From positions 44,124-108,123 of the forward strand of contig CACWLG010000008.1 of the NCBI GenBank assembly GCA_902761635.1: DNA of 64,000 nt, in the 5' to 3' direction. The position numbers and the translations under genes are program-made. The stretch comes from Oscillospiraceae bacterium. Its GTDB lineage: Bacteria > Bacillota > Clostridia > Oscillospirales > Oscillospiraceae. Positions 15,014-55,299 of the stretch are shown piece by piece (within the stretch, counting starts at the first letter, position 1; every line of letters begins with the position of its first letter). Under the pieces are notes generated by a model. It searched no databases and was not told the DNA's origin. It saw only the letters and a list, made by a program, of their open reading frames with translations.

Positions 15014-21975
<6,962 letters not shown>

Positions 21976-49474: not shown

Positions 49475-49987
49475 TCAGCCCAAAGCGACGTAAGGGAGCG
49501 TTACCGGGGGCTGGGCCGGTTGGGATACAGGGGTGTCGTCGTTTGCAGGGATGAAGGAGATGTTGAACTCCTCGGCGAAGCGCTGGGCCTCGGTGTTGAT
49601 TTCTCCGTAGATCGTAACATTGGGGCTGCCGTCAAGGGCTGTGTCGTCGATGTGCTGCACCGTACCGGGGATGACAAGCTCGGTAAGCTTCTTGCAGTCG
49701 GCGAAGGCGCGCGGCCCGATGGCGGTCACGTTCTCGGTGATCTCCACGCGTTTGGCGTCAATGCTCGCGAAGGCTTCTTCCTCGATGGTGACGAGGGCGG
49801 CTGGGAGCGTGAAGCCCTCGCCCTCGGCAGCGTTAAAGGCGTTGGTCTCCCCTGCCGTGAGGGCCGGGGTTTCGACCACGACGGGGATACCGTCCATATA
49901 GATAAGCTCCACGCCGTTGTCCGCAAAGGCGGAGGCGCCCAGGCTCAGCAGCAGAGCAAAGATTAGAAGGAAACTAAGCTTTTTCAT
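49475..49987 (-). CDS. Small secreted BspA-type leucine-rich repeat protein
   Basis: 170 residues from the ATG at 49987, eight bases after AGGAGG; the open frame upstream to 50059 overlaps the peptide gene and is not needed. Signal peptide LSFLLIFALLLSLGASAFA, then LRR_5 units: LVTIEEEAFASIDAKRVEI, VTAIGPRAFADCKKLTELVI, VQHIDDTALDGSPNVTIYG and AQRFAEEFNISFIP, with a Pro-rich tail ending LPYVALG. Its last 60 codons are duplicated as a remnant at 54727. It is the final gene behind the ubiquitin-like protein and the 41-residue peptide. Confidence 0.85.
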   Translation of the reverse strand: MKKLSFLLIFALLLSLGASAFADNGVELIYMDGIPVVVETPALTAGETNAFNAAEGEGFTLPAALVTIEEEAFASIDAKRVEITENVTAIGPRAFADCKKLTELVIPGTVQHIDDTALDGSPNVTIYGEINTEAQRFAEEFNISFIPANDDTPVSQPAQPPVTLPYVALG

Positions 49988-50147: not shown

Positions 50148-52943
50148 TTAAGCAGTAGTTTCCAAATAATAGGCCTCCGCTGCGGTGTAGTAGTTATAGA
50201 ACGCGGTGAGGGCCACAGCTTCATCCTGCTTGTCGCGGCCGCTTGCCATCACGACGCGGGCATAGGTCAGGGCTGAAACCTTTATCTTGCAGAACTCGAC
50301 TCCATCCGCGGAGAACGCCACCGTATAGTCCTTGCCCAGGTTGTTCGCCGCAATGTTGGGGATCTCGATACCGTACAGATTGCCGCCGAGTTCGGTAACC
50401 TCGCAGGCGTTTGTGCCCACCTTTGCGGTGACGGTTTTCGCGCTCTTGAGCTTGACCACCACATGCAGCGTGGTACTCTCCGCGAAGCTGTCGTAGTAGC
50501 TCACGGATTCCAGAACCGCATTGTTGTGAGATATCCACTCAGTCTGGTATTTTTGCAGCGCACTCGCGTCCACAGGCGTGATGCTCGTTGCGGCGGGCAT
50601 CATGGCATAGCCGCCTGTGCCGATGTTGAAGTTGTGGAGCCTTGCAAGGTAGGGCTGGATATAGTGGCCGTAGTTGCGCAAGGCAGTGATCAGGGCTTGA
50701 AGCTTTTCTACCGACGGGTAGGCTTCCTGCGCATTATCCAGATACTCCTTGACAGAGGAGGTGAGCGTCGCGGTTTTGGCTGTACCGCCCATTTTGTAAT
50801 GGAAGACCGCCGTTACAGGCTCCGCCATTTCGATGGAGTACACCGGGCAGGAGAAGATTTTTTGGCCCTGCGTGGCGGCTGCCGTGCTGTTTTCTGCCTT
50901 GGAGAACGGAACGTCGACAGTTCTGCCGTGGACGGTAAGGCTCATGTGCGCGTTGCTGTAATCGAAGCCATCAGGCGTGAACGTATAGAAGCGCATAGTC
51001 AGCGTACCGTCAAGCACCAGGTCCGCGCCGGTGATTTTGGGCTCAACTATTTGAACAGCATATGGATAGGTCGCTTTGTCGGCACCGGTGTTTTCAAATA
51101 CGGCATAGTTCTCGGCAATCAGATTCGCATCTGGTTCGACGTTATATTTGCCGCCTGTAATGTTGCCTGTAACGACATCAAATACGGTCTGTGCGTTATC
51201 GGTATCCACGTTAAATTTGTAGGCGCCGCTATCTATATTGAGCTTGCCTGTTACAATTGCTTCCGTCACATCGTCGCTTTCATGGATATCGACCATAACG
51301 TCCACGCCGCTGAAAGTAAGTGTGGAGCTGTCAAGATCATCACCCAACACATATACACCGCCGGTGCTGCTAAAGCTGCCGCTTGTGACTGATACTGTCT
51401 GAGAGGCAGTATGATCACCGTCTCCGGTTTCGGCAGATACAATAAGCCCATACAGGCCGGAGGTAATGATTGTGCTGTTTGATGAATTCAGTGTGAGATT
51501 CCCCACATTACTATTATAGTTTTCACCCGCTCCCAGGCAAATACCTGCTGTCTTTTTTGCGGATGCCGTGATATTGCTGTCTTTGAATGTAACAGTTGTT
51601 GGGCCGTTTTTGTACGCATAGGCAACAATACCATAAGCGCCTTCATCATCTGTTGCTGATGCTGTCAGGGTACTGCTATCAACCGTAAGCGTAGTTCCAC
51701 ACGGGTTAGTGGTTAGATCACCCCATGTAAAAATATTTAACCCGTTTGCGCATCCGGTTGCTGTTACAGTACTACTGTTCTTAATTTCTACTTTGGCAGC
51801 GCCTTTTCCGTTCGCTGTTTCCTGCGTGCCGACATTAATGCCGTCGGCGCCGTTTCCATTTGCTAAGACGCCATTTGATGCAGTTACATTCACGATGCTT
51901 CCATCAATGGTCAGTGTGCTGTCACCACATTTAGACAGCAGCTCCATCGCATGTCTGCTTGCACCGCTTGCCGGAGCTGATGTGCATCCCGAAAGGATCA
52001 CTGTACTGTTTTCAATTGATACATTCGCATCCCCAGACGCAGTCCCATATCCATAGCAAAGAATTGCCCCTTTGCCGGAGAGATTTGAACCGTTTTTGAT
52101 GGATATTGTACCATCACCAAACTCATTATAAACAAAAATGGCCTGATCAATATCGGTTCCGTCGAAGGTGATCGCGCATTTGTCAATGGTCAACGCATCT
52201 CCGGCGGTATTGTTTCCGTTGACGACAATACCGCGATAGCCAGATATCTGCATACTCAGATCCTTCAATACCGCCTCTTTACCCTTCACGGATACAGCAT
52301 AGCCGTTATCATAGGTACTGGGTACAGTAAGATTCAAGGCCGCGCCATTTCCTGACCCCACAATGCTGACTTTGCCGCTTCCGGCGGATTTGATCGCATA
52401 GCCATACTGAGTTGTAGACTCTACGCTGTTTGTTCCGGAAACGGAAATCGTGAAATCCTTTCCGCCCACATCTCCGATATAGATTGCAGCATCGCCATAC
52501 CCTTCCCCGCGGTATGAATAACTATCCAGCGTCAGCGTGGCAGTTTCGGCATTATACGCAGCCTTTCCGTCATTGAATATGTTCGCGGCGTTCGCGCTCG
52601 TCACCTGCGTGCCGCCGATCCAGAGGGGGTATGCCACTACCAGCCTCAGGGTGCATAGCGACGTGATGTTGTAAGAATAAAGAGTATTACTGTCATCCAG
52701 AACAGTCTCACCATAATATAGCGTTTGACGGGAAGTGGATATTTCTGTTTTATCCTCTATCTTTGCCTTGACATTCTCAATGCTGTCACTGGCTTCTACC
52801 TCCAACGTGAGATTCTCTGCACCGGTGTCAATCTGTACATAAATCTGCATGGCGAAGGCCGGCGTCGCAAACCCCATCACCAGCACCAGCATCAGCACCA
52901 GGCAGATCAGGACGCCGAACAGTCTCTTTGTGTTTTGTTTCAT
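50148..52943 (-). CDS. Secreted beta-helix protein with N-terminal ubiquitin-like domain
   Basis: 931 residues. Signal peptide (1-31) ends TPAFA, so the mature chain would start at Met32. Residues 32-103 (52850 down to 52635) are a ubiquitin-like domain: MQIYVQIDTGAENLTLEVEA, then SDSIENVKAKIEDK and YNITSLCTLRLVV. About half of the positions equal those of eukaryotic ubiquitin by eye, including the helix SDxIENVKAKIxDK with Lys27, Lys29 and Lys33. Lys48, Lys63, Ile44 and the terminal Gly-Gly are not conserved. A long repetitive region (about 105-640: WIGGTQVTSANAANIFNDGK, then many Ser/Thr/Asn-rich beta-helix turns) and a C-terminal domain (about 650-931, ITALRNYGHYIQPYL) follow. Extracellular; binding role likely. 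Confidence 0.88.
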   Translation of the reverse strand: MKQNTKRLFGVLICLVLMLVLVMGFATPAFAMQIYVQIDTGAENLTLEVEASDSIENVKAKIEDKTEISTSRQTLYYGETVLDDSNTLYSYNITSLCTLRLVVAYPLWIGGTQVTSANAANIFNDGKAAYNAETATLTLDSYSYRGEGYGDAAIYIGDVGGKDFTISVSGTNSVESTTQYGYAIKSAGSGKVSIVGSGNGAALNLTVPSTYDNGYAVSVKGKEAVLKDLSMQISGYRGIVVNGNNTAGDALTIDKCAITFDGTDIDQAIFVYNEFGDGTISIKNGSNLSGKGAILCYGYGTASGDANVSIENSTVILSGCTSAPASGASRHAMELLSKCGDSTLTIDGSIVNVTASNGVLANGNGADGINVGTQETANGKGAAKVEIKNSSTVTATGCANGLNIFTWGDLTTNPCGTTLTVDSSTLTASATDDEGAYGIVAYAYKNGPTTVTFKDSNITASAKKTAGICLGAGENYNSNVGNLTLNSSNSTIITSGLYGLIVSAETGDGDHTASQTVSVTSGSFSSTGGVYVLGDDLDSSTLTFSGVDVMVDIHESDDVTEAIVTGKLNIDSGAYKFNVDTDNAQTVFDVVTGNITGGKYNVEPDANLIAENYAVFENTGADKATYPYAVQIVEPKITGADLVLDGTLTMRFYTFTPDGFDYSNAHMSLTVHGRTVDVPFSKAENSTAAATQGQKIFSCPVYSIEMAEPVTAVFHYKMGGTAKTATLTSSVKEYLDNAQEAYPSVEKLQALITALRNYGHYIQPYLARLHNFNIGTGGYAMMPAATSITPVDASALQKYQTEWISHNNAVLESVSYYDSFAESTTLHVVVKLKSAKTVTAKVGTNACEVTELGGNLYGIEIPNIAANNLGKDYTVAFSADGVEFCKIKVSALTYARVVMASGRDKQDEAVALTAFYNYYTAAEAYYLETTA

Positions 52944-53100
52944 ACGTTTTTCTCCCTTCCGTTTGTCTATACAGCAAAAAGCCGCCGAACCTGACAGGGT
53001 ATAGTAACCCCGTCAAATCCGACGGTTATCCATCACGAATGCTGTATTCAGTTTCAAGTGCCCCGCAGCCACAAGGCGCAAAAAGGGCGCAGTCAGCCTC

Positions 53101-53165
53101 TGCTCTGCTCTGCTCTGCTCTGCTCTGCTCTGCTCTGCTCTGCTCTGCTCTGCTCTGCTCTGCTC
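53101..53165. repeat. Pentanucleotide simple repeat (TGCTC)13
   Basis: Thirteen perfect tandem copies of TGCTC, about 160 bases upstream of the ubiquitin-like protein gene, that is, near where its promoter should be. It is set inside a segment that recurs at about 54906-54980 (GCAAAAAGGGCGCAG ... TTCCGCATGGCTG) without the repeat. The remaining bases of 52944-53374 show no gene; a hairpin CCGTC/GACGG lies near 53010-53026. Confidence 0.9.
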
Positions 53166-53374
53166 TAAGGAGCGTAGGTCTGTTCCGCATGGCTGTCAAG
53201 CCCTTCTGTTACGTATAATCAGCCTGTCGCCCGGAGACGAACAGCCCGCGCAGGTGAATAAGAAAGTATGATCTATAATAACATAATTTAAACCTGTATG
53301 CAAGGTTTTTTTAGGGAGGTTCCAGATTGTCATCCCCGGCGATCGGCCGCAGGATTTCAAGGGCTTTTCAACTT

Positions 53375-54508
53375 CTACCGTTCTTTTTCCGCCCTTTTCA
53401 ACGCCTTCAGCTCCGCTTTGAGCCGCCCGCTGAACAGGCGGAGAAGCACCCGGTAAAACGGCAGGAGCGGCAGCAGGATTTTGTATTTGTAAAAAAGCGG
53501 AAATTCGAAGGAGAGGTTCCGGTAGTTCCAGCTGTTTTTATTGAGCGGCTCCAGAAAGCGCTCAAGGGTATAGCGGAGCTTCCCATATCCGAAGCCGGAC
53601 AGCCGCCGCTGAACCGCAAAGACCCTTGACCCATAGACGCCGGAGTTCAGGATGTTTTGTAGCGTCTCGTCCTCCTCCGCCGTCAGCGCCTCGCCGGAGA
53701 ACAGGCGCCGCGCCAGGGAACGGTTGAGGGCTTCAAACTCCGCAATGCCCATCTTTTCCGCTTCCCCAGTCACATAGGCCATATCGAGCTCTTCGTTTTG
53801 CAGGACCACACAGGTATCCAGCAGGGAGCGCAGCCCCGTGCCCATGTCCATATAGTGCTTGTATTCGTGGGCGGTCAGATAGAGATAGAAGTCCTCCGGG
53901 CTGAGGTGCTTTTCATAGCCCTCGCCGAGCAGCCTGCTTTCCACATCCCGGTAGTATTCATACAGCTTCTTATACAGGCCGGGGCCGATCAACTGCCGGT
54001 GCATCTCAAAATTGCTGACAGGCTCTTTGAAATAGACATCATGATGCATGGCGCCGTACTCTTCCGTGTGAAAGCCGAGGCCCTCCATGATGCGCTTTAC
54101 GTCCTCGGCGCGCCCCGCGTCAAACAGGATATCGTGGTCGGACATTTCGCGCATGCCGAACTGCGGGTAATAGTCCTTCAGCACAGCCCCCTTGAGCGGC
54201 ATATGCCAGATCCCCGCCGCGTCCATCTCCGCGAAGATGGCAGCCATATCGGTATCCATCAGGGCAAGCTTGCGCATGGCCTTGGCCTGTGCCTGCGTGA
54301 AGGCGGGATCATGGACCCCTGCGGATTCCAGCGCATACGCCGCAGCCGCGGTCAGCATATGACGGTCGGCGGCAGTATAGAGCGCCGCAAGATCCATGGC
54401 TTCGACACGGCTTCTGTCCGGGACGCTCTCCTGCACGGCGCAGGAGACGAGATAGATCAGGTCATCCAGCGCCGCCCGGTTTTGTCCTTTTCTCATCGTT
54501 TTCACCAC
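53375..54508 (-). CDS. Nucleotidyltransferase-fold protein (NTP_transf_5 family)
   Basis: About 377 residues. The central domain carries WHMPLKGAVLKDYYPQFGMR followed by EMSDHDILFD, the G-x-x-L-x-x-x-Y...(M)R-x-x-x-D-x-D pattern of the uncharacterised NTP_transf_5 group. A helical region with HEYKHYMDMGTGLRSLLDTC follows, and a basic C-terminus with a hydrophobic helix (FYKYKILLPLLPFYRVLLRL). Members occur near polysaccharide and peptide-maturation genes. Start is GTG 54508 or ATG 54496 (second choice four codons in); neither has a strong site. Substrate unknown. Confidence 0.82.
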   Translation of the reverse strand: MVKTMRKGQNRAALDDLIYLVSCAVQESVPDRSRVEAMDLAALYTAADRHMLTAAAAYALESAGVHDPAFTQAQAKAMRKLALMDTDMAAIFAEMDAAGIWHMPLKGAVLKDYYPQFGMREMSDHDILFDAGRAEDVKRIMEGLGFHTEEYGAMHHDVYFKEPVSNFEMHRQLIGPGLYKKLYEYYRDVESRLLGEGYEKHLSPEDFYLYLTAHEYKHYMDMGTGLRSLLDTCVVLQNEELDMAYVTGEAEKMGIAEFEALNRSLARRLFSGEALTAEEDETLQNILNSGVYGSRVFAVQRRLSGFGYGKLRYTLERFLEPLNKNSWNYRNLSFEFPLFYKYKILLPLLPFYRVLLRLFSGRLKAELKALKRAEKER

Positions 54509-54726: not shown

Positions 54727-54906
54727 TCAGCCCAAAGCGACGTAAGGGAGCGTTACCGGGGGCTGGGCCGGTTGGTATACAGGGGTGTCGTCGTTTGCGG
54801 GGATGAAGGAGATGTTGAACTCCTCGGCGAAGCGCTGGGCCTCGGTGTTGATTTCTCCGTAGATTGTAACATTGGGGCTGCCGTCAAGGGCCGTGTCGTC
54901 GATGTG
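54727..54906 (-). pseudogene. Truncated duplicate of the small LRR gene
   Basis: About 180 bases nearly identical to the 3' part of the LRR gene at 49475-49655 (IDDTALDGSPNVTIYGEINT and the tail LPYVALG are preserved). Homology stops at about 54906, where a different segment with GCAAAAAGGGCGCAG begins. There is no signal peptide or start, so it is a non-functional end fragment. Confidence 0.85.
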
Positions 54907-55299
54907 CAAAAAGGGCGCAGCTATGACCGATGCGATGCGATTATGTGCGTCAGATTTCCGCATGGCTGCCAAGCCCCTTTTGCCCATGATGTATGCCGGC
55001 ATTCCCCGAAGCCAACACCATATATTGTGGTTTATTATACCAAACACGCACAAGCAGCGCAAGTCTTTTATGACGTCTGATGCTTTCCGGTTCCCTTCCT
55101 CTTTACCGCCGGTTTATTCCGGACTCAGCTTCCAAAGCTCGCATCTCGAAAAGCGTTGCAAACGGCAGGCTGCCGCGTTATAATGATTAACTTTTTTGCG
55201 TTTGCGGGGTAGAAATCAGACGGGAATCATGTTATACTGATTATGTATGGAATCAGACAGTCCGGAGCTGCCCGCCGCAGATGAAGGGAGAAATGCCAG

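What the first reader, a model, noticed from the sequence alone, without database searches (positions are those of the whole stretch)
52635..52943. Secreted bacterial protein whose mature N-terminus is a ubiquitin-like domain
Seen: after a signal peptide ending TPAFA, the chain starts MQIYVQIDTG and runs for about 72 residues in register with ubiquitin (LEVEASDSIENVKAKIEDK, YNI, STL-like CTLRLV), about half identical by eye with one inserted residue. Signal peptidase cleavage would expose Met exactly where ubiquitin begins. Known: Bacteroides fragilis secretes a ubiquitin homologue; true ubiquitin is otherwise eukaryotic. Inference: transfer from a eukaryote and use outside the cell, perhaps to mimic or bind host factors. 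Because Gly-Gly, Lys48, Lys63 and Ile44 are lost and a beta-helix follows, it cannot be conjugated in the usual way.
Basis: partly seen in the sequence, partly recalled or inferred. Interest (0 to 1): 0.88.

Follow-up and report, generated by a model that had tools for sequence, protein, structure and literature searches.

The report
Exported ubiquitin-headed bacterial protein
A bacterium exports a large protein whose front end is a real ubiquitin-fold domain, and the same signal-peptide-plus-ubiquitin layout turned up in several bacterial phyla and in some phage-like contigs, often with a surface anchor behind it, so ubiquitin seems to have been reused outside the cell rather than as a protein tag.

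Summary
Minus-strand gene 50148-52943 encodes 931 aa: signal peptide (1-31), ubiquitin-like domain (32-103; Pfam 53.7 bits, 37 of 70 residues identical to human ubiquitin, AlphaFold beta-grasp pLDDT 90.8), a predicted beta-helix, and a C-terminal module shared with other secreted proteins of the genus. It is not alone: of 46 distinct bacterial ubiquitin domains collected, 37 directly follow a signal peptide, and 35 of these have small residues at -1/-3 exactly before ubiquitin residue 1 (20 by a stricter rule). They come from several phyla, including named strains (Ruminococcus albus 7, Xylanibacter brevis, Shewanella). Ten of 31 scanned have recognised anchors (SLH, autotransporter, LPXTG, PEP- or VPDSG-CTERM); in a few the ubiquitin is nearly the whole payload; phage-like contigs carry some. 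The conjugation tail is lost and the Ile44 face is less conserved than random exposed sites (P about 0.0007). Best reading: ubiquitin exapted as an exported, non-conjugable N-terminal head; its partner is unknown and a pure spacer role is not excluded. Secreted bacterial ubiquitin is known (BfUbb), so this is a new variant of a known kind. Host mimicry is not specifically supported.

The parts
50148..52943 (-). Whole gene: signal peptide - ubiquitin-like domain - predicted beta-helix - C-terminal module, 931 aa
52851..52943 (-). Signal peptide, residues 1-31, ending TPAFA; cleavage predicted directly before ubiquitin Met1
   Evidence: sequence; hydrophobic core and small residues at -3/-1
52635..52850 (-). 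Ubiquitin-like domain, residues 32-103 of the precursor
   Evidence: PF00240 53.7 bits; AF2 beta-grasp pLDDT 90.8; Foldseek TM about 0.9 to ubiquitin
51291..52628 (-). Predicted parallel beta-helix / beta-repeat region, about residues 106-551
   Evidence: regular short strands in a medium-confidence AF2 model; no convincing solved-structure match
50151..51035 (-). C-terminal module of 295 aa, shared with otherwise different long proteins of the genus and lying at or near their C-terminus; inferred terminal (attachment or sorting) domain
   Evidence: 13 of 61 genus genomes, 5 places in this genome; positions in seven paralogues; well-folded part of the model
52944..53374 (-). Leader between the nucleotidyltransferase gene and the ATG, conserved with the same locus in genome G084 (L026)
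   Evidence: pairwise alignment
53098..53166 (-). Pentanucleotide tandem repeat (CTCTG on the + strand, 13.8 copies, 100% match), absent at the same place in L026; possible phase-variation element (inference)
53375..54508 (-). Upstream NTP_transf_5 nucleotidyltransferase gene; same neighbour and order in G084
   Evidence: Pfam 140.4 bits; L002/L026

Best explanation
A horizontally acquired ubiquitin has been exapted as an exported, non-conjugable N-terminal head domain. Shown from sequence: a Sec-type signal peptide placed exactly in front of ubiquitin residue 1; a ubiquitin-family domain with a predicted ubiquitin fold; loss of the Gly-Gly tail and of most of the Ile44 face; a long repeat region and a C-terminal module behind it. 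Inferred: signal peptidase leaves ubiquitin Met1 as the mature N-terminus; the domain folds outside the cytoplasm and is held away from the cell by the predicted beta-helix, whose C-terminal module probably attaches or sorts the protein; the head acts by non-covalent contact with an unknown partner (another cell, a polymer or a protein). Without Gly75-Gly76 it should not be charged by an E1 nor cut there by a standard deubiquitinase.
For: Of 46 distinct bacterial ubiquitin domains, 37 follow a signal peptide directly. In 35 of 37 a small residue stands at -1 (A, G, S) and a small or permissive one at -3 (A, V, S, T, L, I, G, C, M) exactly before residue 1, against 7, 25, 8, 8 and 20 of 37 at shifts of 1 to 5; with the strict rule (A at -1; A, V, S or T at -3) it is 20 of 37 against 2, 13, 0, 1 and 5. 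The junction is kept where Met1 is replaced by W, F or I (L067, L024, L065). Anchors at curated cut-offs in 10 of the 31 bacterial signal-peptide-ubiquitin proteins scanned with Pfam (11 of the 31 with NCBIfam too): SLH in L029, L031, L033, L105; autotransporter barrel in L017 (two genes) and L022; LPXTG in L030; VPDSG-CTERM in L064; PEP-CTERM in L065; IPTL-CTERM in the viral-collection contig L114. In small members ubiquitin is almost the only folded payload (L114 151 aa, L024 140 aa, L023 132 aa), which argues that the head itself is what is exported. Tail positions 72-76 keep the ubiquitin residue in 14% of cells, the Ile44 face in 49%, the core in 89%. In G084 about 170 residues stand between ubiquitin and the region matching the window's first beta-helix part, so ubiquitin is not an obligatory cap of that helix.
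Against: No binding partner, no expression data, no experiment. No shared binding patch was shown: the other face tested, the Phe4 face, is only weakly above average (P 0.058). dN/dS of the 14 pairs with the lowest dS is 0.21-0.58, a moderate constraint that also fits a structural spacer; some of those pairs are from different phyla, so their dS is rough. The window protein has no recognised anchor, and 21 of the 31 scanned proteins show none at curated cut-offs (four of these 31 are cut off at the C-terminal end by the contig). Nine of the 46 domains have no signal peptide. The C-terminal module has no known function. The beta-helix is a prediction of medium confidence.
Confidence: 0.6

Rival explanations
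1. Structural module only: a fast-folding, protease-resistant N-terminal fold that protects the chain end or caps the stalk, with no ligand.
For: Conservation is highest in the core and in structural residues; no exposed patch is clearly retained. It sits at the N-terminus of many unrelated stalks.
Against: Ubiquitin is nearly the entire payload in several short members; in G084 a different stretch separates it from the region matching the beta-helix; the other four places in this genome with the same C-terminal module have no ubiquitin.
Confidence: 0.25
2. Antagonism factor like BfUbb: the ubiquitin head is recognised by an importer of competitors and inhibits them.
For: BfUbb, a secreted bacterial ubiquitin with the same exact signal-peptide junction, inhibits other B. 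fragilis strains (PMC5705921, passages); the title of Tong et al. 2024 links Bacteroides ubiquitin homologues to a SusCD transporter (reference entry only). Phage-like contigs also carry such genes.
Against: BfUbb is a free 76-residue protein; here the domain is part of a 900-residue chain. No evident immunity or receptor gene among the seven neighbouring genes scanned, although BfUbb producers are reported to need no immunity protein either.
Confidence: 0.12
3. Host mimicry: it binds host ubiquitin receptors or blocks E1 or other ubiquitin enzymes.
For: Ubiquitin fold; BfUbb was reported to bind human E1 covalently, proposed to be through its C-terminal cysteine (PMC3352274, passages).
Against: No free C-terminus, no Gly-Gly or terminal Cys, Ile44 face mostly lost; relatives come from MAGs of varied settings (my reading of titles); nothing found suggests entry into host cytosol.
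Confidence: 0.05
4. Artefact: eukaryotic contamination or chance similarity.
For: The genome is a fragmented assembly (176 contigs, 85.8% complete, 4.7% contaminated).
Against: The domain is in frame inside a signal-peptide gene on a 108-kb contig with bacterial genes; same locus with the same neighbour and a conserved leader in G084; same layout on the completed R. albus 7 plasmid.
Confidence: 0.01

Closest known systems
BfUbb (ubb) of Bacteroides fragilis (PMC3352274, PMC5705921)
   Same: Bacterial ubiquitin homologue; signal peptide whose cleavage site puts residue 1 of ubiquitin at the mature N-terminus; terminal Gly-Gly lost.
   Different: BfUbb is a free 76-aa protein, 63% identical to human ubiquitin, ending in Cys, with reported inhibition of other strains. 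The window domain is 53% identical over positions 1-70 and is the head of a 900-aa chain.
'Ubiquitin family protein' WP_013483628.1 of Ruminococcus albus 7, plasmid pRUMAL01
   Same: Signal peptide directly followed by ubiquitin (90% identical to human over 70 residues), then a further part.
   Different: Short (246 aa); no Pfam match besides ubiquitin-type models; set among small genes several of which start with signal-peptide-like segments. One dedicated paper search returned none.
Same-locus gene in genome G084 / RUG13571 (L026, L012)
   Same: Same neighbour, conserved leader, signal peptide and ubiquitin head (60% over the first 105 residues), same C-terminal module (60%).
   Different: 2117-residue open frame with extra domains between; no CTCTG repeat; its last part reads as shifted in frame in that assembly.
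Eukaryotic ubiquitin and its N-terminal ribosomal-protein fusions (UBA52, RPS27A; recalled)
   Same: Predicted fold, sequence family, N-terminal position in a fusion.
   Different: No Gly-Gly, no processing site, exported, canonical binding face mostly lost.

Membership tests
Ubiquitin superfamily (PF00240) | Profile score above the curated cut-off | tested here: met
   53.7 bits against 25.4
Ubiquitin superfamily (PF00240) | Beta-grasp fold like ubiquitin | tested here: met
   predicted model, pLDDT 90.8; TM about 0.9 to solved ubiquitin; no solved structure
Conjugable ubiquitin / ubiquitin-like modifier | C-terminal Gly-Gly, free or exposed by processing | tested here: not met
   LW at 75-76, chain continues
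Conjugable ubiquitin / ubiquitin-like modifier | Cognate E1, E2 or deubiquitinase genes | tested here: inconclusive
   none among seven neighbouring genes; the rest of the genome was not scanned
Secreted bacterial ubiquitin (BfUbb type) | Signal peptide cleaved exactly before ubiquitin residue 1 | tested here: met
   by sequence rules only; no experiment
Secreted bacterial ubiquitin (BfUbb type) | Free 76-residue protein ending in Cys | tested here: not met
   931-aa chain
Secreted bacterial ubiquitin (BfUbb type) | Inhibits related strains | not testable with these tools
   needs a growth assay
Cell-surface anchored protein | Recognised anchor (SLH, LPXTG, autotransporter, CTERM) | tested here: not met
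   no such hit in the window protein, although present in 10 of 31 scanned proteins of the wider set

The most novel reading that the evidence does not exclude
Bacteria and their phages have turned ubiquitin into a general-purpose extracellular display head: transferred from eukaryotes or their viruses, fused once or several times to a signal peptide at residue 1, then moved between phyla (also on phage genomes) and joined to whatever surface anchor the new host uses, where it works as a non-covalent recognition or antagonism domain. In the window the gene may in addition be switched by the pentanucleotide repeat in its leader.
Probability: 0.3. Interest if true: 0.85.

Novelty: new variant of a known kind. 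Interest (0 to 1): 0.68.

Why it matters
Ubiquitin is the textbook eukaryotic signature, and the published bacterial exception that my searches brought up is BfUbb. A recurrent class of exported ubiquitin heads on different anchors would show that the fold has a second life outside cells without the conjugation machinery. It makes a direct question testable: what does an extracellular ubiquitin bind once its canonical face and tail are gone? It also supplies natural ubiquitin variants and a caution against reading PF00240 hits in bacteria as ubiquitination.

Tried and rejected
Chance or contamination: rejected. Beta-helix N-cap: disfavoured. Number and direction of transfers from the tree: not resolvable with 76 columns (7 of 47 inner branches starred, bootstrap not settled, several long branches; the window row is flagged for odd letter make-up). 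Window + G084 is starred (99/93), yet by raw domain identity another row, L019, is marginally closer (55%). Base composition: domain 43% G+C, gene 51%, window 58%; weak support for foreign origin, not used. Known RNA in the leader: one sub-threshold match in the window, none in L026. Promoter scan: none; one terminator-like hairpin 53025-52982, near chance level. Foldseek of the full-length model: three matches at E up to 0.001, all with TM under 0.1 of query length; in that model the ubiquitin part has low confidence because none of the other alignment rows was chosen to cover it. Phages collection: no match with human ubiquitin, against my phage reading; IMG/VR did match. Plasmids: 3 records; two were opened, the third (a second Pseudoalteromonas) was not. 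Ascertainment: the 14 genome-contig loci were found with patterns taken from the window sequence, so letters shared among them are biased, and they enter the 46; prevalence is taken from the profile searches, whose draws include the centre genome and may overlap.

Rows dropped before the counts: of 49 distinct sequences, two truncated copies of L017 (L056, L045), one weak hit (L038) and two fragments from L072 were left out; two plasmid loci (L099, L100; the ubiquitin start of L100 set by eye) were added, giving 46. Signal peptides were called by a hydrophobic ten-residue stretch (mean Kyte-Doolittle above 2.2) upstream, the two plasmid ones by eye. The permutation test treats positions as exchangeable and sequences as given, not as independent lineages; buried sites and the Ile44 and Phe4 faces were set from recall of ubiquitin structure, and the sets differ slightly. 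The 31 proteins scanned with Pfam are the window protein, 9, 10, 10 and L024; NCBIfam was run on the window protein and ten of the others. L029, L032, L034 and L035 are cut off at the C-terminal end by the contig.

Full report
What is there. The reported segment is the start of a 931-residue minus-strand gene (50148-52943). Residues 1-31 are a Sec-type signal peptide ending TPAFA. Residues 32-103 are a ubiquitin-like domain: PF00240 E 1.8e-14, 53.7 bits; about 54 bits to single-chain ubiquitin in the PDB, with the 60 rows shown of 319 all ubiquitin, ubiquitin fusions or ubiquitin variants; 37 of 70 positions identical to human ubiquitin. On an alignment of 42 sequences AlphaFold2 gives a beta-grasp at mean pLDDT 90.8, and Foldseek returns ubiquitin chains at TM about 0.9 in nearly all of the 50 listed rows (one row 0.30). 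The rest is a run of short strands, predicted as a beta-helix at medium confidence, and a well-folded C-terminal module. The genome holds one PF00240 match.

It is not alone. PF00240 matches (draws include the centre genome and may overlap): genus 3 of 101 genomes, family 8 of 400, phylum 5 of 348, of which 4 pass the cut-off and two of those score only 26-28 bits, the phylum of a Verrucomicrobia MAG 8 of 240, the family of Xylanibacter brevis 4 of 251, the phylum of a Proteobacteria MAG 2 of 249, one of them at 26.6 bits, the phylum of a Coriobacteriia MAG 2 of 198, the phylum of a Spirochaetia MAG 1 of 120, the centre itself. The 14 control genomes gave no match in these searches. So it is rare but wide. 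A scan of named genome contigs gave 14 loci, two of them not MAGs by title: Xylanibacter brevis ATCC 19188 and Shewanella oncorhynchi S-1. The completed plasmid pRUMAL01 of Ruminococcus albus 7 has one too.

The junction. Of 46 distinct domains, 37 follow a signal peptide directly; nine do not (three in L014, two in L018, L021, L072, L071, and L027, where it lies inside a 2026-residue frame). In 35 of 37, permitted residues stand at -1 and -3 exactly before ubiquitin residue 1; shifting by 1 to 5 residues gives 7, 25, 8, 8 and 20 of 37. With the strict rule (A at -1; A, V, S or T at -3) it is 20 of 37, against 2, 13, 0, 1 and 5. The high values at 2 and 5 fit runs of small residues at the end of signal peptides. 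Three members have lost Met1 yet keep the junction (L024, L065, L067). The pattern is what results from a signal peptide fused to the start of a complete ubiquitin reading frame.

What follows the ubiquitin. Of 31 bacterial signal-peptide-ubiquitin proteins scanned with Pfam (11 of them with NCBIfam too), ten have anchors at curated cut-offs: SLH in four, autotransporter barrel in three, LPXTG in one, VPDSG-CTERM in one, PEP-CTERM in one; 21 have none, and four of the 31 are cut off by the contig. Ig-like, MBG, List-Bact or kelch repeats occur in a number of them. By eye only: an LPATG tail in L019, a sortase-like tail in L028, a T9SS-like end in L108 and L070. In some members there is little besides ubiquitin: L023 132 aa, L024 140 aa, and the viral-collection L114 151 aa with an IPTL-CTERM. 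This is the main reason to think the ubiquitin is itself the functional head.

Phage carriage. An IMG/VR scan gave 11 loci. L114-L116 encode nearly the same signal peptide-ubiquitin-CTERM protein (the IPTL-CTERM was scored in L114 only); in L114 terminase small and large subunit and portal genes lie nearby. L111 has the signal peptide-ubiquitin layout with an autotransporter-like part just below Pfam's cut-off (24.3 against 26), in a contig with a ParB/methyltransferase gene of phage type. L110 encodes a signal peptide followed by a complete ubiquitin that stops after LRLRGG, in a contig with phage-like genes. The other six (L112, L113, L117-L120) show ubiquitin frames without an evident signal peptide. 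The annotated phages collection gave no match. Phages are a plausible vehicle; for the window gene itself there is no such evidence.

Which surfaces are kept. In the 37 signal-peptide members the ubiquitin residue is kept in 89% of core cells, in 14% of tail cells (72-76) and in 49% for the Ile44 face, the last lower than random sets of exposed sites (P 0.0007); the Phe4 face is at 78% (P 0.058); lysines other than K27 are average (67%, P about 0.5). The face used by most known ubiquitin-binding proteins (recalled) has thus decayed while the core is held. dN/dS of the 14 pairs with the lowest dS (all below 1) is 0.21-0.58; window against G084 has dN 0.46 and dS 1.75.

History of the window copy. 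The gene at the same locus in G084 has the same NTP_transf_5 neighbour, a conserved leader of about 430 nt, and 60% identity over the first 105 residues and over the C-terminal module. The two group at 99/93 in the tree, although by raw domain identity L019 is marginally closer at 55%. The gene is therefore probably older than this genome, and a direct transfer from a eukaryote into it cannot be claimed. The C-terminal module occurs in 13 of 61 genus genomes and at five places in this genome (not searched beyond the genus), at or near the end of seven other proteins examined. The other four places in this genome lack ubiquitin, which fits domain shuffling onto a resident protein family.

Literature. 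BfUbb is the clear precedent: first quarter of the text and passages of PMC3352274; passages of PMC5705921, including its remark on the exact junction; passages of the review PMC10892293. Tong et al. 2024 was seen only as a reference. Ten full-text searches listed no paper whose title or displayed start of abstract describes anchored or multi-phylum signal-peptide-ubiquitin proteins; several lists were capped (20 of 791, 20 of 31, 15 of 16, 25 of 149), and the library lacks most subscription papers and preprints.

Verdict. The mechanism offered, an exported non-conjugable recognition head, is an inference; a pure spacer role is the main rival. Novelty: new variant of a known kind.

Noticed in passing
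window 53098-53166: (CTCTG) x 13.8 perfect tandem repeat in the leader of the gene, absent from the otherwise conserved leader in L026; possible phase-variation switch.
   Followed up: partly
window 49475-49655 and 54727-54907: 181-nt direct repeat, 98% identical, 5252 bp apart, flanking the ubiquitin gene and its nucleotidyltransferase neighbour; one copy is the end of a BspA-type LRR gene, the other appears to be a lone tail.
   Followed up: partly
window 50151-51035: 295-aa C-terminal module found at or near the end of otherwise different proteins of the genus; no Pfam match there in the window protein; candidate terminal attachment domain.
   Followed up: partly
L110:3902-4228 (IMG/VR contig): Signal peptide followed by complete ubiquitin ending in LRLRGG and a stop, in a contig with phage-like genes: an apparently exported free ubiquitin.
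   Followed up: partly
L114:1791-2243, also L115, L116: Signal peptide-ubiquitin-IPTL-CTERM gene; in L114 it lies near terminase and portal genes.
   Followed up: partly
L014, L018, L021, L072: Contigs labelled or drawn as Actinomycetota with ubiquitin frames without signal peptide, two or more near each other in L014, L018 and L072; L018 and L021 have an LRLRGA ending.
   Followed up: no
L026 near 16073-16085: The end of the G084 same-locus gene reads as shifted in frame relative to the window protein (assembly error or real).
   Followed up: no
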